Origin: an uncultured Solirubrobacteraceae bacterium
Lineage (GTDB): Bacteria; Actinomycetota; Thermoleophilia; Solirubrobacterales; Solirubrobacteraceae
NCBI GenBank assembly: GCA_902806175.1
Contig: CADCVQ010000155.1
Coordinates: forward strand, 1 to 46,784
DNA length: 46,784 nt
Direction of reading: 5' to 3'
Shown: positions 9,807-46,509 of the stretch, in pieces
Layout: each line of letters begins with the position of its first letter
Position numbering within the stretch: the first letter of the stretch is position 1
Program-made: the position numbers and the translations under genes
Notes under the pieces: model-generated
Databases searched by the model: none
Told to the model about the DNA's origin: nothing
The model's input: the letters and a program-made list of their open reading frames with translations, nothing else

Positions 9807-12800
9807 TCAGGACACGCTGCGGCCCGCCTCCAGCGCCGGCGCTTCGAAGGCCCGGTAGGCCGCGGCCGGGGCCGGCGCCGGACGAGCCGGTGGCGGCTCG
9901 TCGTCGAGGTCGAGGCCGGGCGTGTACCACGTCCACTCGCCCGCGAAGTACAGCGCCGCCGGCATCATCACGAGCCGCACGAGTGTGGCGTCGATGATCA
10001 CGGCGATTGCGAGACCGACGCCGAACTGACGCAGGCTCGAGACGTCGGCGAAACCGAAGGCGACGAACACGCCGAGCATGCTGAGTGCCGCTCCGGTGAC
10101 GACGCGCGCGGTTCGCGACAGGCCGACGTGCAGCGCGCGCTCCTCGTCGCCGCAGCGCAGCCACTCCTCGCGGACACGGCTCAGGATGAACACCTGGTAG
10201 TCGATCGACAACGCGAAGACGACGCCGAAGATCGCGGTCACGGCGACCGCGTCGATCGTGCCCGGGCCGCCGAACAGCGGCGCGCTGCCCTGGAAGAGCA
10301 GCGCGAGCAGGCCGAGCGTCGCGCCGACGGCGAGCAGGTTCAGGACGACGCCGACGATCGGCACGACGATCGAGCGCAGCAGGATGCCGAGCAGCAGCGC
10401 CGTCACGAGCGTCAGGACGATCACGATGATCGGCAGCCGCTTCCCGGCGACGGCGTTGTAGTCCGTGAGCACCGCAGCGGGACCCCCGACGGCGGAGTCG
10501 GCGCGCAGCGACTTGCCCAGCTGCGCGCTCGTGGCGCGCAGGCGCTGGTAGAGGGCCTGCGTGCGCGGATCGGACGCGTTGTAGCGCGGCACGACGACGA
10601 TCCGTGCGCCCTGGCCGCCCCGGTCGACGTTGACGCCAAGCGGCTTGTCGTTGCCGCTCTCCAGCGCGGCGAGCAGGAAGTAGCCGGAGTCAAAGAAGCT
10701 CGCGGTCGCGCCCTTCGGCGTCGCGCCGCCGCCGGACGCCGACTTGTTGAGGCCGTTGACCGCGCTCTGCGCTTCGTCGAGGCCGGTCGCGAGCTGGCTG
10801 CTGCGCTTCTCTCCGTCGCGCACGCCGCTGGCGAAGCCGTCGAGGTCTTTGCGCACGTCGCCGACCGCGCTGCCGATCTTGCTCGCGCCACCGTCGAGCT
10901 CGTCGAGCGTCTTGGCGAGCGAGTCGCTGCCCTGCGACAGGGCGCCGACGGAGCCGCCGAGCTTCTTGACGCTGCGGGTCATCGCCTCGGCGCTGTCGGC
11001 GAGGGTGCCGACGGCGGTCGCCAGCTTCGCCGCTTCCCGCGTCGGCGTCGCCGCGGCGAGCTTGGCGGCGTACTGGGCGTCATAGCCCAGCTGGCGCATC
11101 GGCTCGTCGAGCGCCGCGCCCGCGTCGGCGGCGAGCGCACGGCGCGCGGCGGCGAGCGCAGCTCGCGCGCGGATGCCGGCGGCGGTCGTCGGGGAGATCG
11201 AGCGCTCGGCGGCGGCGATCGCGTCGTGCGCCTGGCGGCGCTGCGCGCGAACGCTCGCCTGCACGCTCTGCAGGCTGCTCATACGGTTCTGCAGACGGTC
11301 CTGCAGAAAACGCGCGCCGCCGGCGAGCTTGCTCAGCCCGTCGCTGAGGGATCGTGCGCCCTGACGGACACTGCGCGCGCCGCTGCCGGCAGCCGCCGAG
11401 CGGGATGCGAGGTCGTCGGCGCCGCGACCGGCGTCGGTGAGCTTCTCGGCGAGCTTGCGCGCGCCGCTGCCGGCGCCGTTGATCCCCGTCTTCAGCTGGC
11501 CGACGCCGCCTTCGAGGTTGCGTGATCCGGAGGTCACGCGGTCCGCAGCGGACGTCGCGCCCGACAGCGAGCTGCGCAGCGAGCCGGCGCCGTCGGCGGC
11601 CGTGCTGACGCCGGCGTCGAGCTTGCGCAGCCGGCCACCGTCGCGCGGCTTGCCGCGACCGGCCGACAGCGCCTTGCGGCCGCTGTTGCGCAGCTTGGCG
11701 GCGGAGCTCGCGATCTCACCCGGCCCGAGCACGGCCCGCACGGCGGGGTCCTTCGCGAGCCTGCGCTGCACTTGGGCAAGCTCCGCCAGCCGCGGCTGCG
11801 TCGTCACGGTGCCCTTGCGGGTCACGGCGACGATCTCGAAGGGCTCCGTCCAGCCTGCCCCCATCGCCTTCGTGACGGCGTCGTAGTCCGTCCGCGCCGG
11901 GCTGTCTGACGGAAGCGACTGCGCCGTCGGAGCGCCGGTGCTCAGGCCGAGAACCGGCACGCAGGCGGCGAGCAGCAGCGCCGCGGCGGCAAGTCCGAGG
12001 ACCGGGCGGCGCATCGCCGCGCGGGCGATGCCCGCGCTGATGCCGCCGGCCGCGGCGCTCGTGCGAGGCGCGCCGCCGAGGTGCTGGCCGGCGAGGACGA
12101 GGATCGACGGCACGACGAGCATCGCGGTGGCGGCCGACACGATGGCCACGACGCTGACGCCGAGCGCGGCGCCCAGCAGGCCGGTCCCCGACGAGGCTGC
12201 GGCGGCGACCGCCATCGCCACGACGATCGCCGCGGCAGCGACGGCCACGGTGCGGATCGTCGGCGCGGCGGCCGCATCGACGGCGGCGCGGATGTCGCCG
12301 TCACGCTGCTCGGCGACCTCCTCGCGCACCCGTGAGACGAGCAGCAGCGAGTAGTCGACGGCGAGCGCGAGCCCGACCATGCAGGAGATCGCCAGCGCGA
12401 ACGCGTCGAGCTTCACGGCGCCCGCGAGCAGCGAGAGCAGCCCGGTCGACGACGCGATCGTGGCCGCGCCGAAGGCAGCGGGGATCGCCGCGGCCGCGAA
12501 GGACTGAAAGACGAGCAGCAGGGCGACGAAGAGCAGCGGAAGGGCGATGAGCTCGGCGCGATGGATCGCCGACAGCGACCGGCGCGTGCCCTCGCTGCTC
12601 AGCAGCGGCGTGCCGGTGACGCTCGCGCGCACCGGGGCTGCGGTGCGGGCGGCCACGAGCCGCTGCGCCGCTGCGCTGCGGCGCTCGATCTCGTCGCGCG
12701 TGCCCGAGATCGAGAGCAGCAGCAGCGCGCGATCGGAGCTCGGGCGCAGCGCGCTGCGCCCGGCGGAGGCCGACCAGGGGCTGAGGACCCGCACGCCCGG

Positions 12801-14865: not shown

Positions 14866-15034
14866 CTAGTGGGCGCGTCCGGAAGTTGTGCGAGGTTTTG
14901 CGGGATGCCCGGCCGTGATCTGACGGTCGACGGTGTCCCGCCTTCGTGCTGGTGCACGGGGGCGGGCGCCGGCGGACGTCAGGCGCGGATCGGGCGCCCG
15001 GAAAACCCGCAGAACTTGCGGACGCGTCCACTAG
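14866..15034 (+). mobile_element. MITE-like element, copy A, with about 36-bp imperfect terminal inverted repeats
   Basis: The element begins CTAGTGGGCGCGTCCGGAAG and its right end, read on the other strand, begins CTAGTGGACGCGTCCGCAAG; similarity continues for about 36 bases through a TTTT-containing block to a CCC. It has no coding capacity of its own. A second copy in opposite orientation is at 35423-35601, nearly identical except in the centre (about 14960-14972), where copy B has roughly ten extra bases. CTAG at both ends may be a 4-bp target duplication or part of the repeat; CTAG is palindromic, so sequence alone cannot say. It separates the divergent GNAT and ABC-F genes. Confidence 0.8.
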
Positions 15035-15236
15035 CGCGAGGGCGCCGCAGTCGCGCCGCGGGACGTCGCGGCGCAGTGCTCTGGTGAACATCGCGTGTGT
15101 CCACCCCAACCTCCCGCTCGCGACCCGCGGTGCGGGGCCGGTGTCGCGTACCGGGATCGGCGGGCTGCTCTACCTTCGCCTGCACGGCCGCGCGCTGCCG
15201 TCGCTGCTGATCGGCGCCGCCGCCTCCTCGAAGACC

Positions 15237-17045
15237 ATGGCCGTCGCGCGCAACCTCCTCAACCTCAAGTCCGTCTCCAAGGGCTTCGGCAGCCGCTCGG
15301 TGCTGCACGACGTGACGCTCGGCGTCGCCGCCGGCGAGCGGATCGGGATCGTCGGGCGCAACGGCGACGGCAAGTCGACGCTGCTGCGCCTGATCGCCGG
15401 GACCGAACGGCCCGACGCCGGCAACGTGACCCGCGCCCGCGACGTCGAGCTCGCGATGCTCGGCCAGGACGATGAGCTCGACCGCTTCCGCACGATCCGC
15501 GACGCGCTCGTCGGGGCCCGCGCCGACCACGAGTGGGCGGCCGACAGCGCGTTTCGCGCCGTCCTCGACGGGCTGCTCGGCGGCGTCGGCCTGGCCCGCT
15601 TCCCGCACGGCATCGAGTCGGCGATCGCCGAGCTGTCGGGCGGCGAGCGGCGGCGGATCGCGATCGCGCGGTTGCTGCTCGACGGCCCTGAGCTGCTGCT
15701 GCTCGACGAGCCGACGAACCACCTCGACGTCGAGGCGGTCGACTGGCTGGCGCACCACCTCGCGGCGCGGCGCGGGGCGCTGCTCGTCGTCACCCACGAC
15801 CGCTGGTTTCTCGATGCCGTCTGCACCGCGACGTGGGAGGTCGCGGACGAGACGGTGCACCAGTACGACGGCGGCTACGCGGCCTTCGTGCTCGCGCGCG
15901 CCGAGCGCGATCGCCAGGCCGCGGCCCGCGACGATCGCCGCCGCCAGCTGCTGCGCAAGGAGCTCGCCTGGCTGCGGCGCGGCCCGCCGGCGCGGACGAG
16001 CAAGCCGAAGTTCCGCATCGACGCCGCCAACGAGCTGATCGCCGACGAGCCCGAGGTCCGCGATAGGGCCGAGCTGCTGCGCTTCGCGACCGCCCGCCTC
16101 GGCGACAAGGTGCTCGAGGCGGTCGACGTGTGGCTCGCGTTCGGCGACAACCCGCCGTTGCTGCACGACCTGACCTGGCGCCTGGGGCCGGGGGATCGCG
16201 TCGCGCTCGTCGGCGTCAACGGCTCGGGCAAGACGACGCTGCTGTCGCTGCTGGCGGGCGCGCTGGAGCCCGACACCGGCGAGGTGCAGCGCGGCGCCAC
16301 CGTCCGTCTCGCCCGGCTGTCGCAGGACAGCGCCGAGATCCCCGGCCACCTGCGCGTGCTCGAGTCGCTCGAGGAGGTCAAGGACGTCGCCACGCTGAGC
16401 GACGGCCGGCAGATCACAGCCAGCATGCTCTGCGACCGCTTCGGCTTTCGCGGCGACCTCGCGCGGACGCCCGTGCGCGACCTGTCGGGCGGCCAGCGCC
16501 GGCGGCTGCAGCTCATGCGCCTGCTGATGGCCGAGCCCAACGTGCTGCTGCTCGACGAGCCGACGAACGACCTCGACATCGAGACGCTGACCGCGCTCGA
16601 GGACCTGCTCGACCGCTGGCCGGGGACGCTCGTGATCGTCAGCCACGACCGCTACTTCGTCGAGCGCGTCTGCGACGACGTCTACGCGCTCACCGGCGAC
16701 GGCGCGATCCGCCACATGCCCGGCGGGATCGATCAGTACGTGCAGTCGCGGCGCGCGAGCGCGGCGACCGCTGCTGCGCCGCGCGCACCCGCGGTCGCGA
16801 CCACGCCCGCGACGCCGAGCCTCGGCGGTGGCGCGACACGCGCCGCGCGCAAGGAGATCCAGCGCCTGGAGCGTACGCTCGAGCGCCTCGGCGCGCGCGA
16901 GGACGAACTGCACGCCGCGATGGCGCAGAGCGCCACCGACCACAACCGGCTGCGCGAGCTGCAATCAGAGCTCGAGGCATGCGTCACAGAGCGCGACCAG
17001 GTCGAGGCGACGTGGCTGGAGGTCGCCGAGGCGCTCGAGGCGTGA
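15237..17045 (+). CDS. ABC-F ATPase (Uup/Ettp-like, ribosome-associated or duplicated ATPase)
   Basis: 602 residues from the ATG at 15237 (MAVARNLLNLKSVSKGFGS). Two ABC domains without membrane segments: Walker A GRNGDGKST then signature LSGGERRRIAIARLL and Walker B LLLLDEPTNHLD; second domain Walker A GVNGSGKTT, signature LSGGQRRRLQLMRLL and Walker B LLLDEPTNDLDIE. An Arg-rich linker (about 225-280) joins them, and the last 80 residues form a charged coiled coil as in Uup. ABC-F proteins act on ribosomes or, for Uup-like members, possibly on branched DNA. The first Walker A has Asp where most have Ser or Cys (GDGKS). Upstream open frame to 14946 lies partly in the MITE-like element and is disregarded. 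Confidence 0.9.
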   Translation: MAVARNLLNLKSVSKGFGSRSVLHDVTLGVAAGERIGIVGRNGDGKSTLLRLIAGTERPDAGNVTRARDVELAMLGQDDELDRFRTIRDALVGARADHEWAADSAFRAVLDGLLGGVGLARFPHGIESAIAELSGGERRRIAIARLLLDGPELLLLDEPTNHLDVEAVDWLAHHLAARRGALLVVTHDRWFLDAVCTATWEVADETVHQYDGGYAAFVLARAERDRQAAARDDRRRQLLRKELAWLRRGPPARTSKPKFRIDAANELIADEPEVRDRAELLRFATARLGDKVLEAVDVWLAFGDNPPLLHDLTWRLGPGDRVALVGVNGSGKTTLLSLLAGALEPDTGEVQRGATVRLARLSQDSAEIPGHLRVLESLEEVKDVATLSDGRQITASMLCDRFGFRGDLARTPVRDLSGGQRRRLQLMRLLMAEPNVLLLDEPTNDLDIETLTALEDLLDRWPGTLVIVSHDRYFVERVCDDVYALTGDGAIRHMPGGIDQYVQSRRASAATAAAPRAPAVATTPATPSLGGGATRAARKEIQRLERTLERLGAREDELHAAMAQSATDHNRLRELQSELEACVTERDQVEATWLEVAEALEA

Positions 17046-17409
17046 CAGCCTCGACCGCCTGCTGCTCGAGCCGGCGATGCTCGAGGCCGTCAGCCCGACG
17101 TGCACCTCGTCGGCACGTTGCTGTCGCTGACCGGCGTGATCCCGGCGCGCTCGCGCGAGCCCGCGCGGATGATCGTCCGCAGCGTCGTCGCGGATCTCGA
17201 GCAGCGCCTGGCGCTAGTCCACGCGCGAGGCCGTGACCGGCGCGATCAACCGCGCCGCGCGCACGCGGCGGCCGCGCCGCCTCGCCGAGGTCGACTGGCC
17301 GCGGACGATCCGGGCGAACCTGCGCCACTACCAGGAGGCGTACAAGACGGTGATCCCCGCGACCCTGCACGGCCACGGCCGCCGCTGCCAGGCGATCGAG
17401 ACATCGTGA
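17044..17409 (+). pseudogene. VWA/CoxE-like protein, internal fragment with two frameshifts
   Basis: Joining frames gives SLDRLLLEPAMLEAVSP, then DVHLVGTLLSLTGVIPARS and VVADLEQRLA, then TREAVTGAINRAARTRRP and DWPRTIRANLRHYQEAYKTV, ending HGHGRR. This is the middle of a family of roughly 400-residue VWA-domain proteins that are usually coded with a MoxR-type AAA ATPase. Frame changes are needed near 17096 (one base lost) and near 17215. The N-terminal hundred residues and the whole VWA domain are missing. It abuts the ABC-F stop codon, so that gene may have been fused to this locus by deletion. Confidence 0.65.
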
Positions 17410-17563
17410 CCGCGCGTCCGGCGGGCTGACGCGGAGGCGCAGGCCCGGCCCCGGCGGCGCACGCGCCAACACGTTCGGCCGCGGGCGAAAGCGCGACTGC
17501 AGCCGCTCGTGTTTATCTACCATTGCGTTCCGGTTTCAGCCGATCCAGGGGCAATGCGCGCGC

Positions 17564-18373
17564 GTGACATCTCGCCGGACGAAATTCGCTGTGCTCGGCG
17601 TGGTCGCGCTCACGCTGGCCGGCTGCGGCGGCAGCGACGCCCCGTGCACCGCGGCACCCGGTGCGGCGCCCGGCAGCGTGGAGGCCCCCGCCGACTGCGC
17701 CGTGAGCGCCGTGGTCGCCGTCGATGCGACCGGCGCGCTGCAGGATCGCGCGCTGGCGCGCGACGTCGGCTCGGCGGCGCTGCGAGCGGCCGAGCACACG
17801 ATCACCGCGGGCGGGCACCTGCGGCTGGTCGTGTTCGCCGGCGACGCGAACTCCGTCGAGGTCATCTACGACGACGAGGTACCGACCCTCGAGGAGCTCG
17901 ACGAGACGCGCCGCGGGCCGATGGAGCAGGATCTGCGCGCCGCGCTGGGCGAAACGCTCGACAGCGCGCTCGGCGTCAGCCGCGCCGACCGGGCCCTGAC
18001 CGCGCGTGTCCGCACGCTGACGCGCGGCGGCACGTCGGACATCGCCCGCGCCGTTCGCAACGCGCTGCAGACGCTGCAGCAGCGCTCCGGCGCCGCGGCG
18101 ATGACGCTCGTCTCCGACGGCGTCCAGGCCAGCGACCAGCTCATGCTCGCGCGCCGGATGCAGGCGGGCGATCCGCGCGAGCGCCTGGGCGCGCAGCTGG
18201 GCGACCTGCTCGGCAGCGCGGATGGCGTGGAGGTGCTGCAGGCCGTCGGCCTCGGGCGGCTGCCCGACCGCGTCAACCAGAGCGCGCGCCGCACCGACGA
18301 CCTCGTCCAGATCTGGAAGACCGCCTGCGAGCAGACCGGCGCGGCGAGCTGCGCTACGACGACAGAGCTATGA
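17564..18373 (+). CDS. Lipoprotein with VWA-like domain (first gene of an unknown envelope operon)
   Basis: 269 residues from a GTG start. A lipoprotein signal peptide ends in TLAGC (Cys21). The rest reads as a von Willebrand A-like fold: AVSAVVAVDATGALQD opens with a MIDAS-like D54-x-T56 (the third position is Ala instead of Ser), the third ligand can be Thr157 in RGGTSDIARAV, and Asp185 in TLVSDGVQASD fits the fourth motif. Such domains bind metal and protein ligands outside the membrane. No family name comes to mind. It is followed after 24 bp by a four-TM protein and then a third gene that overlaps, so I infer an operon. Confidence 0.7.
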   Translation: MTSRRTKFAVLGVVALTLAGCGGSDAPCTAAPGAAPGSVEAPADCAVSAVVAVDATGALQDRALARDVGSAALRAAEHTITAGGHLRLVVFAGDANSVEVIYDDEVPTLEELDETRRGPMEQDLRAALGETLDSALGVSRADRALTARVRTLTRGGTSDIARAVRNALQTLQQRSGAAAMTLVSDGVQASDQLMLARRMQAGDPRERLGAQLGDLLGSADGVEVLQAVGLGRLPDRVNQSARRTDDLVQIWKTACEQTGAASCATTTEL

Positions 18374-18397
18374 GCCGCCACGGCTGAGGAGCACCGG

Positions 18398-19759
18398 ATG
18401 AAGCCAGACGATTCCCAGCAGGATCAGATCTCGGACCTGCCGCCGCCTCTGCTGTCGATCCCCGACGTCGGCGAGCCGGCAGAGGCGCCCGCCGAGGCCG
18501 AGCGCCCGATCGCCGACGGCACGCTGCCGGCCCCCGACCTGGCGGACGAGGGGCGGCGCACGCAGGCCGGTCATCCGCGCGACGACGCCGACCGCGTCCG
18601 CGGGACGATCGTCTCGGAGAGCATCGCTCAGCACGCCGACCACGCCATCGGCTCGCGCCTGGGCCCGCTGATGGAGCGCGCCGTCCGCGTGCGCACGCTC
18701 GACGACGACCTCATCGAGGCCACGACGGCCGCCGAGCAGATCTCGACACCGCCCGGCGAGGCGCCGCCCGCGCCGCCGCCGACGACGATGCGCGGACGGC
18801 TGGGAGCCCGCATGGCCGCCGGCGGCGGGTTGCTGGCGCTGTTCTTCGCCGTCGGCATCGCCGAGGCGCTGTTCGCCTATGACGGCTTCCGCGAGCTCGC
18901 GCGCTTCCGGGAGAGCGATCCGGCGCTGCTGCGCGAGGGCGCCCCCGCCTTGTCGGCGATCGTCATCGCCCTGCTCATCGCCGTCGGGCAGAAGGCCGTC
19001 GGCAAGAACCTGCGCCTCGCGCACGCAACGGACCCGCACCCGCCCGCCGAGGGGCGCCGGCCGCTGCTGGAGCGGGACCTACCGGGCACCGCGCGCTACG
19101 CGATCGCACTGGCGATCATCATCACCGGCCTCGGGCTGTGGTACGGCGTGCAGAGCGCACGCACGACCGCAAACAACGCCGCCGCCGCCCGCCAGCAGGC
19201 CAATCAGGCCGCCGGCGCACGCGGTTCTGCCGCCCAGCGCCTGACGCAGAACACCCAGCCGTCGGCGAGCGAGCCCGGCGTGTACTTCCTCGTGTCGGCG
19301 TCGGTGTTCCTGCTCGGCATCGGCGTGGCGTACCTGCTTGTCGATCCGCTGCGCGAGGCGCGCGAGCGCCAGCGCCGCCGCGACGCCGGGACGATCGAGC
19401 ATCGCGATCGCGTGCGCGCCGAGCTCGCATCGGAGGTCGGCGCGCTGGTCGCCCAGCGCGCGGAGATCGCGACCACCGTCGCCAACGCCAAGCGCCAGAT
19501 GCACCAGGAGGCCGTGCTGCACCCGCAGGTCGCCTTCCTGCAGCGCGCCGACGAGCTTCCGCATCTCTACGGCACGTGGAGCGCGCGCTCCGAGGAGCCC
19601 CTGCGCGGCGTGCCGGAGGTCGGCGAGGCGCATCACGCGCAGGCCGATCTGGCGCGGACCGGCGGGCTGACGGTCCCCGACAAGCTCGCCGACGTCGACG
19701 CGCTGATCGCGGAACTGCTCGGCCGCAACCTCGCGGGCCCCAAGAGCCGGCCCGAGTGA
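18398..19759 (+). CDS. Four-TM membrane protein of unknown function with acidic N terminus and coiled-coil tail
   Basis: 453 residues; GAGGAG lies about ten bases before the ATG. Residues 1-130 are acidic and Pro-rich, probably disordered and cytoplasmic. Membrane segments: about 140-161, 185-200, 232-250 and 294-316. Between TM3 and TM4 is an Ala/Gln-rich loop (ANNAAAARQQANQAAGARGS). After TM4 comes a basic stop-transfer (REARERQRRRDAG) and an Ala/Glu-rich helical stretch, then HPQVAFLQRADELPHLYGTW. I recognise no family. It sits between the VWA-like lipoprotein and the one-TM protein and probably forms the membrane core of their complex. Confidence 0.65.
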   Translation: MKPDDSQQDQISDLPPPLLSIPDVGEPAEAPAEAERPIADGTLPAPDLADEGRRTQAGHPRDDADRVRGTIVSESIAQHADHAIGSRLGPLMERAVRVRTLDDDLIEATTAAEQISTPPGEAPPAPPPTTMRGRLGARMAAGGGLLALFFAVGIAEALFAYDGFRELARFRESDPALLREGAPALSAIVIALLIAVGQKAVGKNLRLAHATDPHPPAEGRRPLLERDLPGTARYAIALAIIITGLGLWYGVQSARTTANNAAAARQQANQAAGARGSAAQRLTQNTQPSASEPGVYFLVSASVFLLGIGVAYLLVDPLREARERQRRRDAGTIEHRDRVRAELASEVGALVAQRAEIATTVANAKRQMHQEAVLHPQVAFLQRADELPHLYGTWSARSEEPLRGVPEVGEAHHAQADLARTGGLTVPDKLADVDALIAELLGRNLAGPKSRPE

Positions 19760-20778
19760 GCGGGCCGCGCCAGCCGTCGGGGCGGCGCGCCGCAGCAGGC
19801 CCGCGCGCGCCCGCAGCAGCCCGTCGCACGCGCGGCACGACAGGCTCCGGCCGCGCGTCGCATCCGCCGCTCCGCGCGGGCAGCGATCCAGAACGCGAGC
19901 CCGGCGCCGCCGACGAGCAGGTCGCGCCGGCGCCCGAGCTGTCGACCTGGCAGCTGCTGCTGCACCAGTTCGACGCCTTCCTGCGCGATCCGCGGCTGAC
20001 CAACGCGCTGCGGGCGTCCATGGCGAACCTGTCGGCCGGCGTACGCGGCCTCGGAGCAGCGACGCGCGAGGCGCTCAGGCAGATGGCGCTCGCCCTGCGC
20101 CGCATCCGCGTGCCGTTTCCGCGCCGCCTGCTGCTCGCCCTGCTGGCGCTGGCCCTGCCGCTCGCGCTGCTGGCCCTGCTGAGCTCATCTGACGAGCGCA
20201 GTACCCGCAGCGCGACAGAACAGCGCCCACCCGCGGCCGAAGCCGATGGCGGCCTGTCGCTGCCGGGCGTCGGGATGCCGGACCTGCTGCCCGCGCCGGC
20301 GAAGGTGCCGCGGGTGCGCGTCGCGCTCGTCCTGGACCCGAACAGCTACGACCCGGCGGCGCTGCGCGGCGAGCTGCGGGCGCTGGGCACATGGCTCGCC
20401 GACAACCACGCGCCGGGCACGCGCGTCTCGCTGATCGATGCCGCCAGCGGCCGCGCGAGCGCTCCGCTGCGCGCGGCGCAACTCGCGACCGCTCGCGCCG
20501 CGCGCCCGCGGCCGAGCACGAAGGCCGCGATCCGCTCGGCGTTCGCGCGCCAGAAGCGCCGGCGCCTGCTCGTCACGCTCGGCGCGGCGGTGACGCCGCC
20601 GGGCCGGGCGACCACGTTGGCCGTCGACACCCGCCGCGGCGCCGGCGCGGGATCGGCCACTGCGCTGCGGCGCGGGCGACGGTCGCGCGTGACGATCGAC
20701 GAGCGGCGACCGAACGCGCTCGCGGCGAACGTCGCACGGGCGATCATGGCGATCTCCGGCCAGCGCGAGCGGCGCTGA
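19756..20778 (+). CDS. One-TM protein with a basic N terminus and an outer alpha/beta domain, third gene of the unknown operon
   Basis: 340 residues from the GTG at 19756, which overlaps the previous stop (GTGA), indicating translational coupling. Residues 1-50 are Arg/Ala/Pro-rich; helices such as STWQLLLHQFDAFLRDPRL precede one membrane segment at about 122-144. The outer part starts RVRVALVLDPNSYDPAALRG and continues GTWLADNHAPGTRVSLID and RRRLLVTLGAA, alternating strands and helices like a Rossmann or VWA-type fold, but without a MIDAS DxSxS. I infer that it partners the VWA-like lipoprotein outside the membrane. The function is unknown. Confidence 0.65.
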   Translation: MSGPRQPSGRRAAAGPRAPAAARRTRGTTGSGRASHPPLRAGSDPEREPGAADEQVAPAPELSTWQLLLHQFDAFLRDPRLTNALRASMANLSAGVRGLGAATREALRQMALALRRIRVPFPRRLLLALLALALPLALLALLSSSDERSTRSATEQRPPAAEADGGLSLPGVGMPDLLPAPAKVPRVRVALVLDPNSYDPAALRGELRALGTWLADNHAPGTRVSLIDAASGRASAPLRAAQLATARAARPRPSTKAAIRSAFARQKRRRLLVTLGAAVTPPGRATTLAVDTRRGAGAGSATALRRGRRSRVTIDERRPNALAANVARAIMAISGQRERR

Positions 20779-20785
20779 CGCTGTC

Positions 20786-21013
20786 TCAGCCCGAAGGCTC
20801 GGGCGGAAGCGGCTGCGGATTGAGCGCGACGGCGTCGACGAACGACTGAAAGATCTCCTGGAAGCGCGGCGGGAGCGGCTGCGGATTGAGCGCGACGGCG
20901 TCGATCACCGACAGCAGGATGCCCTGGGTTCGCTCGTCGGAGAGGCTGTCGGTGAGCCCGCGGATCTCCTCGAGGATCGCGCTGTCGCTGCTGGCGTCTG
21001 CAGAACCCGTCAT
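20786..21013 (-). CDS. Small protein with two ALNPQPLPP motifs
   Basis: 75 residues. An acidic helical start (SDSAILEEIRGLTDSLSDER) is followed by two copies of a module: IDAVALNPQPLPP and VDAVALNPQPLPP, the second ending four residues before the stop. The repeat is nearly identical in DNA too (about 28 bases within 20813-20841 and 20873-20901), implying recent duplication. GGGGAGGG lies about ten bases before the ATG, so it is translated well. I have seen the NPQPLPP motif in small uncharacterised proteins of diverse bacteria, with no function known to me. It converges with the VWA-like operon, seven bases apart. Confidence 0.75.
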   Translation of the reverse strand: MTGSADASSDSAILEEIRGLTDSLSDERTQGILLSVIDAVALNPQPLPPRFQEIFQSFVDAVALNPQPLPPEPSG

Positions 21014-21668: not shown

Positions 21669-22379
21669 ATGCTGTATGGGGGAAGGGCGGTGAAGGTCGA
21701 ACACCTCGCGCCGGGCGCGTCCCGCCCCGTGACGCTTCAGGCGATCCTGCGTGCCGAAGCCACGAAGCTCCCGTTCCTCGTCGTCTCCCCCGCGAGCGAA
21801 GGCCAGCGCATCGTCATCCTCGAGGCCGTCGACGAGGCCCTGTGGATCGGCCGCAGCCCCGACTGCCACATCCCGCTCGAAGGCGACCGGCTGGCCTCTC
21901 GAACCCACGCCGGGCTCGTGCGCACAGGCGGCGACTGGGCGATCGCCGACGACGGACTCTCCCTCAACGGGACGTTCGTGGGCGCCGACCGCGTCGTCGG
22001 CCGCCGGCGCCTGCAGGACGGCGACGTCGTCTCCGTCGGGGAGTCGACCCTCGGGTTTCGCGCGGCGCGCACGGGCGCGGTTGCGAACAAGACGGTCGCG
22101 GGCGACCGCCTGCCGGCCCGCCCCGACGTCACCCCCGCACAGCAGCGGGTGCTCGTGGCGCTGTGCCGACCGCTGCTCGGCGATCCGCCCGGGTCGTTGC
22201 CGGCCTCCAACCGGCAGATCGCGGAGGAGCTCTGCCTCTCGGAGGACGCGGTGCGCACGCACCTGAAGGCGCTCTTCGAGCGCGCGCGGGTGGGCGCGGT
22301 CGCCCAGGGCGCGAAGCGGGTTCGTCTCGCCGAAGTCGCGCTCGCCACAGGCCTCGTCGCCCGCCACGACGTCGAGTAG
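21669..22379 (+). CDS. FHA-domain protein with C-terminal winged-helix/LuxR-like DNA-binding region
   Basis: 236 residues. The FHA domain spans about 45-125, with ALWIGRSPDCHIPL, the phosphothreonine-binding Arg/Ser elements and SLNGTFVGADRVVGRRRLQDGD. A helix-turn-helix follows: LPASNRQIAEELCLSEDAVRTHLKALFERA, then VRLAEVAL. FHA-HTH proteins link Ser/Thr kinase signalling to transcription in actinobacteria. No kinase is nearby. It is directly upstream of the two cell-wall enzyme genes (122 bp gap), so it may regulate them. An internal GTG at residue 8 is an alternative start. Confidence 0.85.
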   Translation: MLYGGRAVKVEHLAPGASRPVTLQAILRAEATKLPFLVVSPASEGQRIVILEAVDEALWIGRSPDCHIPLEGDRLASRTHAGLVRTGGDWAIADDGLSLNGTFVGADRVVGRRRLQDGDVVSVGESTLGFRAARTGAVANKTVAGDRLPARPDVTPAQQRVLVALCRPLLGDPPGSLPASNRQIAEELCLSEDAVRTHLKALFERARVGAVAQGAKRVRLAEVALATGLVARHDVE

Positions 22380-22500
22380 CCGCTGCAGGGGGTGGTGCGA
22401 ACCACCGCGGGCGGGGGTGGGAGGGTCGGCTGCACGGGCGCAAGCTGGCGGGGTCAGCAACCCCAGCCGGCCGATCGGCCGGAGAAGGCAGGAACACACC

Positions 22501-23460
22501 ATGCGCACGACGCAGCGAGCCGTCCTCAGCACGATCGCCCTCGCGGCGGCGCTCCTCGGGACCGCAGCGACCTCCGCCTCCGCCCTCGAGATCACCGCGT
22601 GCCCCGACGAGGGGCGGCTCGACTGGGCGAAGGTCCAGCTCTTCGCGGGAGCCAACTGCTCCGGCGGTCAGATGGTCGTCAAGGCCGCCGACCCCAGCCC
22701 GGACCGCCCGAACTTCGTGTCGTTCACGAACTTCGACGGCAGGCAGTACAACGTCGACAATTCCCGTTCGTCGCTGCGGCTCGCCCCCGGGACCTGCGTG
22801 CGCTTCTACGACGGCGCCAACTACACGGGGACCGCCTCCACGGACATCTGCGCGAGGGACCGCCCACTCGAGTGGGATCTGCAGCGCTTCGACAACCGCG
22901 CCTCCTCGATGCGCGTGTTCGCGCTGCCCGGCGCCGGCGCCCCGGTGCCCGTCCCGGTGCCGCAGCCGGCTGCGGCACCCCCCGCCAGCCCCGCGGCGGA
23001 CCGCGCGACGGCCTGGGCTGAATCGAAGGTCGGCATGCGCGAGTGCACGCCCGAGCAGACGGGCTGGGTGCGGGCCTACAACCGCTCCTGGAGCTGCCAC
23101 ACCTATTGGTGCGGGATCTTCGTCTTCAATGCATACAGGAGCGCCGGCGCGCCGCTCAGGGGCGGGTACGCCTCGACCGAGTGGATCCACGACTCCGCGA
23201 CGGCCGGTCGCAACGGCCTGAGCGTGGTGCCGCTTGACCAGGTCCGCCGCGGCGACCTCGTGCTCATGTACACGCGCAGGGTCGCGAGCAGCCGGGATGT
23301 CGGCCACGTCGGCATCGCACGCGGCCCGGTCAACAACGGCACGATCCCGACCGTCGAAGGCAACATCTCGAACAAGGTCGTACTGAAGGAGCGCTCGATC
23401 ACCGCGCGCTATAACAGCGCCCACAAGCTCGTCGTCCTCGTCGCCCGCGTCGGGGTCTGA
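22501..23460 (+). CDS. Secreted cysteine peptidase/amidase (CHAP-like) with N-terminal crystallin/I36-like domain
   Basis: 319 residues from the ATG at 22501, preceded by GGAGAAGGCAGG. A signal peptide ends near ATSASA (about residue 27). Residues 40-142 form a two-motif beta-gamma-crystallin or peptidase-inhibitor I36-like domain (AKVQLFAGANCSGGQ, FVSFTNFDGRQYNV, TCVRFYDGANYTG). After a Pro/Ala/Val linker (145-165) comes a CHAP/NlpC-like domain with the nucleophile in TYWCGIFVFNAY (Cys204), His in DVGHVGIA (His269) and VEGNIS. It should cleave amide bonds in peptidoglycan stems. Two bases separate it from a paralogue sharing its N-terminal domain. Confidence 0.82.
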   Translation: MRTTQRAVLSTIALAAALLGTAATSASALEITACPDEGRLDWAKVQLFAGANCSGGQMVVKAADPSPDRPNFVSFTNFDGRQYNVDNSRSSLRLAPGTCVRFYDGANYTGTASTDICARDRPLEWDLQRFDNRASSMRVFALPGAGAPVPVPVPQPAAAPPASPAADRATAWAESKVGMRECTPEQTGWVRAYNRSWSCHTYWCGIFVFNAYRSAGAPLRGGYASTEWIHDSATAGRNGLSVVPLDQVRRGDLVLMYTRRVASSRDVGHVGIARGPVNNGTIPTVEGNISNKVVLKERSITARYNSAHKLVVLVARVGV

Positions 23461-23462
23461 GC

Positions 23463-24422
23463 ATGCGCCGCTCGCTCCTGATCGCGCTCGCCATGGGCGC
23501 CACCACCCTGCTTGCGCCCACAGCGGCGCAAGCAGGCGAGGCCGCGGCGTGCCCCGCCGCGACGAAGCTCTCCTTCGCCCGCGTGCAGCTCTTCGTGGGT
23601 GCCTCCTGCTCGGGCGGCCAGGTCGTCATCCGAGCCGATGACTCAAACCCCGACCGGCCGGACTTCTCGCGCTTCGTGAACTTCGACGGCAGGACCTACA
23701 ACGTCGAGAACTCGCGCTCGTCGCTGCTGATCGCCAATGGCACGTGCGTGCGGCTGCACGACGGGCGCGGCTTCACCGGCCTCGCCTCGACGGACATCTG
23801 CGCGATCGGGCGCGACCTCGGCTGGAATCTCGCCCGGTTCGACGACCGGACGAGCTCGATGCGGGTGTTCGCGGCCCAGGGCGCCGCACCGCTCCCAGCG
23901 CCTGCGCCGGTGCCCGCGCCCGCCCCGTCCGCGGCGCTGGAGCCCAATCCCGCGCCGTTCTCGAGCAGGGAGGACTTCATCGCCCGCTCGGCGCCACTGG
24001 CGCAGGCGACCCAGCGGGAGTTCGGGGTGCCCGCGTCGATCACGCTCGGCCAGGCCGCGCTCGAGTCCGGCTGGGGCGCGCACACCGTCGGTCCCGCGAA
24101 GAACTACTTCGGGATCAAGTGCGGAGTCGGCCCGGCCCGGATCGCGTTCGGCTGCCTGGCGCGGCCGACGCGCGAGTGCGGGCGCGGCGGGTGCCGGACG
24201 GTCAGGCAGTCGTTTCGCATGTACCGGTCGATGCTCGACTCCTTCCGCGACCACGGCGAGCTGCTGCGCCGCAAGTACCCGCGCGCGATGGGCGTGTCCG
24301 GCGACCCGCGGGCGTTCGCGCGGGAGCTCAAGCGCGGGGGCTACGCGACCGATCCCGACTACGTCTCAAAGCTCGTCCGGACGATGGACGCCCGCGGGCT
24401 CTACCGGTACGACCTGCGATGA
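23463..24422 (+). CDS. Secreted glucosaminidase (FlgJ/LytG-type) with N-terminal crystallin/I36-like domain
   Basis: 319 residues. A signal peptide ends at TAAQA (about 24). Residues 36-137 repeat the domain of the preceding gene (ARVQLFVGASCSGGQ, FSRFVNFDGRTYNV, STDICAIGRDLGWNL). A Pro/Ala linker (143-165) leads to an endo-beta-N-acetylglucosaminidase domain: FIARSAPLAQATQREFGVP, the catalytic Glu201 in GQAALESGWG, KNYFGIKC, then FRMYRSMLDSFRDHGELLRR. It cuts glycan strands of peptidoglycan, complementing the peptide-cutting neighbour. The two genes form an operon and arose by duplication of the N-terminal domain plus exchange of the catalytic part. Confidence 0.85.
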   Translation: MRRSLLIALAMGATTLLAPTAAQAGEAAACPAATKLSFARVQLFVGASCSGGQVVIRADDSNPDRPDFSRFVNFDGRTYNVENSRSSLLIANGTCVRLHDGRGFTGLASTDICAIGRDLGWNLARFDDRTSSMRVFAAQGAAPLPAPAPVPAPAPSAALEPNPAPFSSREDFIARSAPLAQATQREFGVPASITLGQAALESGWGAHTVGPAKNYFGIKCGVGPARIAFGCLARPTRECGRGGCRTVRQSFRMYRSMLDSFRDHGELLRRKYPRAMGVSGDPRAFARELKRGGYATDPDYVSKLVRTMDARGLYRYDLR

Positions 24423-45221: not shown

Positions 45222-45561
45222 CGCAGGCCCGCGGTCCGTGCCGGCCTGCTCGCAGACCCGATCGCCGGCACGCCGATCAGGTGACCGTCTTCATCGGCGC
45301 GTCGGCCCGAACATCGGCCAGAGAGGCAGCTACACTGCGCACAGCAGAGGATCGCCCGCGCGTCGCGTTTGTTTGCTCGCGCAATCATCTGCTATGCTTA
45401 CTCGCGGTGTCGTGCGGGGAGCCCGTGATGAGGGCTTTCCGCCATTCGCTTGACCGCCTCTTCTCCTCCCTTCTGACGTGCCGCGCCTCATGGTGGGCAA
45501 CGGGCAGACGGGCGAGGTGAGTCGCGAACAGCGACGCTCCGACACATCTGAAAGGGAACGC
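45222..45561 (+). promoter_or_regulatory. Leader region and probable promoter of the sigma-factor gene
   Basis: TTGTTT at 45369-45374 and TATGCT at 45393-45398, 18 bp apart in a locally AT-rich patch, look like a housekeeping promoter. A start near 45405 would give a leader of about 155 nt. In it an ATG at 45428, preceded by GGGGAG, opens a 30-codon frame (MRAFRHSLDRLFSS... to 45520), a possible leader peptide. A weak hairpin GAGTCGC...GCGACGCTC lies near 45521-45541. Confidence 0.5.
45428..45520 (+). CDS. Possible 30-residue upstream leader peptide
   Basis: ATG at 45428 with GGGGAG six bases before it. The peptide (MRAFRHSLDRLFSSLLTCRA, then SWWATGRRAR) ends 41 bp before the sigma-factor start. 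It could serve translational attenuation, or be chance. Only the spacing of the ribosome site supports it. Confidence 0.25.
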   Translation: MRAFRHSLDRLFSSLLTCRASWWATGRRAR

Positions 45562-46509
45562 ATGGCCAGGACTACCACAACGACGAGTGCACGCCGTCGC
45601 GGCGAGCACAGCGCACCGACGAAGCGCCCCCGGCGGCGGACGCCCGCCGAGGACGTTGCGAAGCATGGCGCGCGCGTCCAGGCCGAGATGACGGCCGATT
45701 CGCTGCAGACCTTCCTCAACCAGGCGTCGCGCTACGCCCTGCTGACGGCGGCTGAGGAGATCGAGCTTGCCAAGCGCATCGAGCGTGGTGACATCGCTGC
45801 GAAGGACCGCATGATCAATGCGAACCTGCGCCTTGTCGTCTCGCAGGCGCGCCGCTACCAGGGTCTGGGTCTGCCGCTCGGCGACCTCGTCCAGGAGGGC
45901 ACCCTCGGGCTGATCCGTGCCGCCGAGAAGTTCGACTGGCGCAAGGGCTTCAAGTTCTCGACGTACGCCACGCTCTGGATCCGTCAGAGCATCCAGCGCG
46001 GCCTCGCGAACACGTCGCGGACGATCCGCCTCCCGACGCACATCGAGCAGCGCGAGCGCAGGCTCGCGCGCGTCGAGCGCGACCTAACGGCGAAGCTCTC
46101 GCACGATCCGTCCGACGAGGAGGTCGCGGCAGCGGCCGACATGACCGTGCCGGAGATCCTCGCGCTGCGCGAGGCGCGCCGCCACGTCACGAGCCTCGAC
46201 GTGCCGATCGGCGACGACGGCGACAGCAACCTCGGTGACTTCATCGCAAGCGAGCGGCCCGATCCGAGCCAGGAGGCGGAGTCCAGCGAGCTCGAGCGCA
46301 CCGTCGCCGACGCCCTCGGGCGCCTGACCGGCGAGGAGCGCCGCGTCGTCGAGCTACGGTTCGGACTGCGCGACGGCCGCGAGCGCTCGATCGAGGCGAC
46401 GAGCCGCGAGCTCGGCCTGACCCGCGACCGCGCGCGTCAGATCGAAGAGGCCGCGATGCGCAGCCTGGGCGACGAGCCCGCGCTGGAGAGCCTGCGCGAA
46501 GCCGCGTAG
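45562..46509 (+). CDS. RNA polymerase sigma-70 factor, primary-like (RpoD/SigA-related group 2)
   Basis: 315 residues from the ATG at 45562, with GAAAGGGA just upstream. The N terminus is basic and Thr/Arg-rich (MARTTTTTSARRRGEHSAPT). Region 1.2 DSLQTFLNQASRYALLTAAE, region 2 NLRLVVSQARRYQGLGLPLG, DLVQEGTLGLIRAAEKFDWR, KFSTYATLWIRQSIQRGLAN, and region 4 ELRFGL (as VVELRFGLRDG) with RELGLTRDRARQIEEAAM. Region 1.1 of vegetative sigmas is lacking, so this is a group 2 factor. No anti-sigma gene is adjacent. A terminator follows. Confidence 0.9.
   Translation: MARTTTTTSARRRGEHSAPTKRPRRRTPAEDVAKHGARVQAEMTADSLQTFLNQASRYALLTAAEEIELAKRIERGDIAAKDRMINANLRLVVSQARRYQGLGLPLGDLVQEGTLGLIRAAEKFDWRKGFKFSTYATLWIRQSIQRGLANTSRTIRLPTHIEQRERRLARVERDLTAKLSHDPSDEEVAAAADMTVPEILALREARRHVTSLDVPIGDDGDSNLGDFIASERPDPSQEAESSELERTVADALGRLTGEERRVVELRFGLRDGRERSIEATSRELGLTRDRARQIEEAAMRSLGDEPALESLREAA

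What the first reader, a model, noticed from the sequence alone, without database searches (positions are those of the whole stretch)
17564..20778. Uncharacterised three-gene envelope operon with a VWA-like lipoprotein
A lipoprotein with a near-complete MIDAS (D54, T56, T157, D185; third Ser changed to Ala), a four-TM protein with a disordered acidic tail and coiled coil, and a one-TM protein with an outer alpha/beta domain are packed with 24 bp and then a 4-bp overlap. No member resembles a named family I know. The architecture suggests an envelope complex in which VWA-type domains act outside the membrane, for example in adhesion, sensing or secretion. Of all loci here this is the best candidate for a new system.
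Basis: inference. Interest (0 to 1): 0.7.

Follow-up and report, generated by a model that had tools for sequence, protein, structure and literature searches.

The report
Rare three-gene VWA surface-protein cassette
Three tightly packed genes in an uncultured actinobacterium encode a surface lipoprotein, a four-helix membrane protein and a second membrane-anchored protein, with von Willebrand A (binding) domains in two of the three; the set is a real, rare, undescribed family that also occurs in a distant family of the same class, there partly inside mobile DNA elements, and its exact job is still unknown.

Summary
Genes A (17564-18373, lipoprotein), B (18398-19759, four TM) and C (19756-20778, one TM) are packed as stated, conserved in order in 4 of 6 other genomes of the genus, and under purifying selection. 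"No member resembles a named family" is only partly right: A is a divergent VWA protein, and C's outer domain is a second VWA fold that has lost its metal site (AlphaFold pLDDT 80; best PDB matches are VWA domains). Within the genus, DNA similarity starts at a shared ATCTACCAT element about 40 bp upstream of A and ends at C's stop codon; the flanks differ at most sites, so the trio behaves as a self-contained cassette. Distant copies exist in another family of the class: two full trios with a canonical MIDAS in A and C, and two A-B pairs inside integrative elements with a VirD4-type coupling ATPase, a MobC-type relaxase and a serine recombinase. Best explanation: an envelope complex whose outer VWA domains bind a surface partner, with B as the membrane hub, related to parts carried by integrative elements. 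Contact, exclusion and transfer roles are inferred; none is shown. A new variant of VWA envelope systems, moderately interesting.

The parts
17515..17523 (+). ATCTACCAT element, about 40 bp upstream of gene A; promoter (-10-like TACCAT) or operator candidate
   Evidence: Invariant in all five genus copies; once in the window, chance expectation 0.01; in the genus loci only upstream of this operon. A promoter scan found no sigma-70-type site.
17564..18373 (+). Gene A: 269-aa lipoprotein with a divergent VWA domain
   Evidence: ORF and translation; weak VWA_CoxE match in 5 of 5 members; profile match over its length to distant A proteins with DxSxS (E 1e-10; E 3.5e-12, far above shuffled null).
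17624..17626 (+). Lipobox Cys21 (LAGC)
   Evidence: Sequence; conserved in all five genus copies.
17723..17737 (+). MIDAS loop 1, D54-A-T56-G-A58 (canonical D-x-S-x-S in most distant relatives)
   Evidence: Alignments A7 and A10.
18035..18040 (+). MIDAS loop 2 candidate S158-D159
   Evidence: Invariant in genus; aligns with GTD of distant relatives.
18116..18121 (+). MIDAS loop 3, D185-G186
   Evidence: Alignments A7 and A10.
18314..18352 (+). C-terminal signature W-x3-C-x7-C (possible disulfide)
   Evidence: Present in all nine A homologues.
18398..19759 (+). Gene B: 453-aa protein; N-terminal acidic disordered region, four TM segments, cytoplasmic C-terminal coil-like tail
   Evidence: homology to distant B proteins E 9.1e-5, score 41.9 against null maximum 20.
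18818..18874 (+). B TM1
   Evidence: Hydropathy
18947..19003 (+). B TM2, running into the conserved GxxLR cytoplasmic loop
   Evidence: Hydropathy and alignment
19100..19156 (+). B TM3
   Evidence: Hydropathy
19286..19342 (+). B TM4
   Evidence: Hydropathy
19756..20778 (+). Gene C: 340-aa single-TM protein with an outer VWA-fold domain
   Evidence: 4-bp overlap with B.
20128..20184 (+). C TM segment; N side RRIRVPFPRR suggests N-in, C-out
   Evidence: Hydropathy and charge
20281..20775 (+). C outer domain: VWA fold with the MIDAS lost (DxSxS loop deleted, GGT loop shortened, DG replaced by LG)
   Evidence: Alignment with canonical VWA of distant C proteins; AlphaFold pLDDT 80.5, pTM 0.79; VIA-align Z 11.0 to SpaC, 10.8 to Mfa5, 9.8 to BatB and the VWF A2 domain.

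Best explanation
A, B and C are one transcription unit and most likely form one envelope complex. A is a lipid-anchored extracellular VWA domain that binds a partner through a modified MIDAS face. C puts a second, metal-free VWA domain next to it on the outside and probably serves as a docking scaffold. B is the four-TM hub whose cytoplasmic coil-like tail would pass binding on, or anchor the complex inside. Relatives of A and B sit in integrative elements with a coupling ATPase and a relaxase, so the most likely role is recognition at cell-cell or envelope contact (a mating- or element-related surface function), now standing alone on the chromosome in this genus. Shown: gene packing, conservation, VWA fold of C (by prediction), homology of A and B to the distant copies, and the mobile-element context of two A-B pairs. 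Inferred: complex formation, A's ligand binding, the topology of C, and the contact role.
For: Same order A-B-C with tight spacing in five genus copies and in two trios of a distant family (L063, L067); A-B adjacency also in L068 and L078. Homology tests against column-shuffled nulls: A 85.5 vs 21.8, B 41.9 vs 20.0, C 22.5 vs 20.5. Reciprocal check: a profile of distant A proteins only finds the genus copies at 1.7e-9 and 2.2e-8. C is a VWA fold. Among pairs with a continuous match, DNA similarity runs from the ATCTACCAT element to C's stop. Mobile context: recombinase, relaxase PF13814, VirD4-like ATPase and A-B in two related elements.
Against: No direct evidence of interaction or ligand. 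The window trio has no coupling protein or relaxase beside it, and the genome's one clear Replic_Relax gene sits beside a tyrosine-integrase-like gene, not this operon. C's relatives lack a TM and are probably cytoplasmic, so C's place in the complex may differ between lineages. C-to-C' homology by profile alone is weak (E 0.03), and the C model's alignment included two canonical VWA sequences. The two A-B elements are homologous to each other, so the mobile link rests on one element lineage. The AlphaFold model of A failed (pLDDT 37).
Confidence: 0.45

Rival explanations
1. Exclusion or defence at the envelope: A (surface lipoprotein) and B (inner-membrane protein) act as an exclusion pair that blocks incoming conjugative elements or other invaders, by analogy with TraT/TraS; the genus keeps a stand-alone copy as protection.
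For: A-B pairs are carried by integrative elements beside defence-like genes: type I restriction-modification and a PDC-S11-like gene in L068, a PD-T4-6-like kinase in L078. Distribution is rare and patchy and genomic sites vary.
Against: No PADLOC model matches A, B or C convincingly. TraT and TraS have no VWA domain (own knowledge). No evidence of phage or plasmid blocking.
Confidence: 0.2
2. A part of a DNA-transfer machine: A-B form a minimal envelope channel or mating-contact module working with the VirD4-type coupling ATPase; the genus trio is a domesticated remnant.
For: A and B lie on the same strand as the coupling ATPase, MobC-type relaxase, methylase and recombinase in two elements, with no VirB4 or PrgI recognised in the stretches read.
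Against: A related coupling-ATPase/relaxase pair on an Embleya plasmid lies with PrgI and ATP-binding (VirB4-like) genes and no A-B was annotated there. A-B is separated from the ATPase by 0.5-2.5 kb holding opposite-strand ORFs. The trios lack ATPase and relaxase.
Confidence: 0.15
3. A general adhesion or envelope-sensing complex unrelated to mobile elements; the elements merely picked up A-B as cargo.
For: The structure neighbours of C include pilus-tip adhesins (SpaC, Mfa5, PilB) and integrin domains; a trio-only unit is kept under purifying selection in the genus.
Against: A shared VWA fold shows no function; no sortase, pilin or repeat-adhesin gene was recognised next to the trio.
Confidence: 0.15
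4. A member of the published VWA systems with tubulin-like FtsZl1, GAP1-N2 GTPases or MoxR ATPases.
For: Those operons often hold signal-peptide or TM-bearing VWA proteins (PMC2875224; PMC7159879).
Against: No tubulin-like, GTPase or MoxR gene was recognised beside the trio or its relatives in the stretches read.
Confidence: 0.05

Closest known systems
VWA/integrin I domains (Pfam PF05762, PF13519, PF00092)
   Same: C outer domain has the VWA fold; A has the D and DG elements of MIDAS, and distant A and C proteins carry DxSxS-type motifs
   Different: A in this genus has D-x-T-x-A and scores below Pfam's cut-offs; C has no MIDAS
FtsZl1-VWA operons (Makarova and Koonin 2010, PMC2875224)
   Same: VWA proteins with signal peptides or TMs in operons with membrane proteins
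   Different: No tubulin-like protein, GTPase or OmpA gene recognised here
MoxR-VWA and GAP1-N2 conflict systems (PMC7159879)
   Same: VWA component, sometimes extracellular with TM helices
   Different: No MoxR AAA+ ATPase or GAP1-N2 GTPase recognised beside the trio
Integrative elements with VirD4-type coupling ATPase and Replic_Relax (MobC) relaxase
   Same: Two such elements in the same class carry A-B homologues
   Different: The window trio has none of the mobility genes next to it and has gene C instead
Pilus-tip VWA adhesins (SpaC, Mfa5, PilB)
   Same: Among the best structural neighbours of C (Z about 10-11)
   Different: No pilin or sortase context recognised; no MIDAS in C; C is a 1-TM protein

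Membership tests
VWA domain family (gene A) | Score above Pfam gathering threshold | tested here: not met
   PF05762 19.6 bits against 26.4; 5 of 5 members match weakly
VWA domain family (gene A) | MIDAS DxSxS...T...D | tested here: inconclusive
   Here DATGA, S158, D185; most distant homologues have DxSxS, GTD and TDG
VWA domain family (gene A) | VWA fold | tested here: inconclusive
   AlphaFold model failed, pLDDT 37
VWA domain family (gene C outer domain) | VWA fold | tested here: met
   Model pLDDT 80.5; the best-ranked PDB matches are mostly VWA/I domains, Z up to 11.0
VWA domain family (gene C outer domain) | MIDAS | tested here: not met
   Loops deleted or changed against canonical relatives
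MoxR-VWA systems | Adjacent MoxR AAA+ ATPase | tested here: not met
   None recognised among the neighbours scanned or read
FtsZl1-VWA operons | Adjacent tubulin-like gene | tested here: not met
   None recognised among the neighbours scanned or read
Conjugative/integrative element component | Coupling ATPase and relaxase in the same locus | tested here: not met
   None recognised around the window trio; present with A-B in L068 and L078
PADLOC defence systems | Match to a defence model | tested here: not met
   Only E 0.036 for B; none at 1e-3 for L078 A and B

The most novel reading that the evidence does not exclude
A new family of compact envelope cassettes (VWA lipoprotein, four-TM hub, second VWA protein) that moves between genomes, in part on integrative elements, and governs contact-dependent acceptance or rejection of DNA from neighbouring cells.
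Probability: 0.12. Interest if true: 0.75.

Novelty: new variant of a known kind. Interest (0 to 1): 0.45.

Why it matters
Bacterial VWA proteins outside the membrane are common but poorly understood. This family is small, self-contained and testable: three genes, one apparent promoter element, paired VWA domains of which one lost its metal site in one genus, and a link to integrative elements. If the contact or exclusion reading holds, it would show how element-borne surface proteins become chromosomal envelope systems in a little-studied class.

Tried and rejected
AlphaFold of A from five close relatives failed (pLDDT 37). Weak hits of A, B and C elsewhere in the family were translated and looked like unrelated proteins or signal-peptide matches. 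PDB sequence searches gave only chance-level hits for A and none for B and C. Phage and plasmid collections gave no relatives for A; B was searched in plasmids only. Viral contigs gave none. A direct A-to-C profile comparison is not significant, so the two VWA proteins are not shown to be recent duplicates. A motor-stator role was considered: the C TM segment (LLLALLALALPLALLALLS) has no acidic residue, which argues against a MotB-like part (sequence only). No terminal repeats stood out at the edges of the conserved block. Papers on a VWA-linked exclusion system or on VWA in Solirubrobacteraceae were not found in the held library.

Full report
Observation. A carries a lipobox; B has four hydrophobic segments; C has one, with an Arg-rich N side. 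In A, D54, T56, A58 and D185 are as described, but S158 rather than T157 is the invariant residue that lines up with the MIDAS threonine of distant relatives.

Conservation in the genus. The trio is present in the same order in four of six other genomes of the genus held (G013-G016) and was not found in G012 (77% complete) or G017 (98% complete); none of the other 139 genomes of the family holds a true copy (weak hits inspected). A scan of about 85,000 species genomes with B returned only the same four genomes, titled as Solirubrobacteraceae or Actinomycetota MAGs. Identities to the window copy are 70-81% (A), 78-86% (B) and 54-67% (C); dN/dS is about 0.25-0.38, 0.23-0.28 and 0.53-0.61.

A discrete block. 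Where blastn gave one continuous match (window against L028, L029 and L031), it runs from 17511-17514 to 20779-20781, that is from an invariant ATCTACCAT element about 40 bp upstream of A to the stop codon of C; for L030 the match is split into pieces by the longer B and begins at 17535. Flanking DNA within the stretches read is not shared, except between L029 and L030, and except one sigma-factor gene near the L031 trio that lies 25 kb away in the window. The 9-mer occurs once in the window and, in the genus loci, only upstream of this operon. No synteny control for other genes of these genomes was run, so mobility of the trio is suggested, not shown.

Distant relatives. A profile of A found one true relative in another family of the class (G522, E 1.3e-7); searches from there found G477, a second copy in G522, and G440. 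Full trios occur at L063 (G522) and L067 (G477); A-B pairs at L068 (G522) and L078 (G440). Genus against distant profiles: A E 3.5e-12, B E 9.1e-5, both far above column-shuffled nulls; C E 0.03, just above its null maximum. In reverse, a profile of distant A proteins alone finds the genus copies at 1.7e-9 and 2.2e-8. Most distant A proteins and both distant C proteins carry DxSxS-type MIDAS motifs. Phylum samples gave no further convincing hits.

C is a VWA fold. Aligned with the canonical VWA of its relatives, C has lost the DxSxS loop, shortened the GGT loop and changed DG to LG. AlphaFold gives pLDDT 80.5 and pTM 0.79; the best PDB matches are VWA-type and integrin I domains, with VIA-align Z 11.0 to the pilus adhesin SpaC. 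Two canonical sequences were in that alignment, which helps the prediction but is a caveat. The same tool failed for A with five close relatives.

Mobile context. L068/L069 and L078 are stretches of two related integrative elements. On one strand they carry A, B, a VirD4/TrwB-type coupling ATPase, a Replic_Relax protein, a DNA methylase and a serine recombinase (ATPase 49%, relaxase 40%, recombinase 54%, A and B 44% identical). Replic_Relax (PF13814) is listed as the MobC relaxase family in PMC5357655. Their flanks hold defence-like genes. The window trio lacks all mobility genes; the genome's own clear Replic_Relax gene lies beside a tyrosine-integrase-like gene and apart from the trio.

Interpretation. 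The packing, order and co-conservation support one functional unit at the envelope. Two of three products have VWA-type domains and, in this genus, both are predicted outside. The link to integrative elements makes a contact-related role (mating, exclusion, adhesion) the most economical guess, but it rests on one element lineage. Published VWA systems with MoxR ATPases, tubulin-like FtsZl1 or GAP1-N2 GTPases were considered and are disfavoured because none of those partners was recognised beside the trio.

Verdict. Real, rare, previously undescribed in the sources searched, built from known domain kinds. Function remains open and testable.

Noticed in passing
window 20785-21013, - strand: Small protein read by eye with two copies of a VDAVALNPQPLPP-like motif (a 60-nt direct repeat at 20802 and 20868), convergent with gene C.
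   Followed up: partly
window 17100-17520: What looks like a broken reading-frame remnant between the ABC-F-like gene (14946-17045) and gene A.
   Followed up: no
window 21669-22379: FHA domain protein with a weak LuxR-type HTH match.
   Followed up: no
window 22417-24422: Two tandem secreted proteins with similar N-terminal halves and different cell-wall hydrolase domains (Amidase_5/CHAP-like and glucosaminidase).
   Followed up: no
L031 12736-13710 and window 45535-46509: The sigma-factor gene beside the G014 trio is 81% identical to a gene 25 kb from the window trio, which suggests local rearrangement.
   Followed up: partly
L078 13249-14589; L068 8720-13199: Element cargo: PD-T4-6-like kinase; PDC-S11-like gene plus type I restriction-modification.
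   Followed up: partly
L095 (G000:C160) 10135-12308: The genome's own Replic_Relax gene lies next to a tyrosine-integrase-like gene at a contig end.
   Followed up: partly
L067 4295-6196: 634-aa multi-TM protein without a Pfam match, just upstream of the G477 copy of A on the same strand; possible fourth gene there.
   Followed up: no
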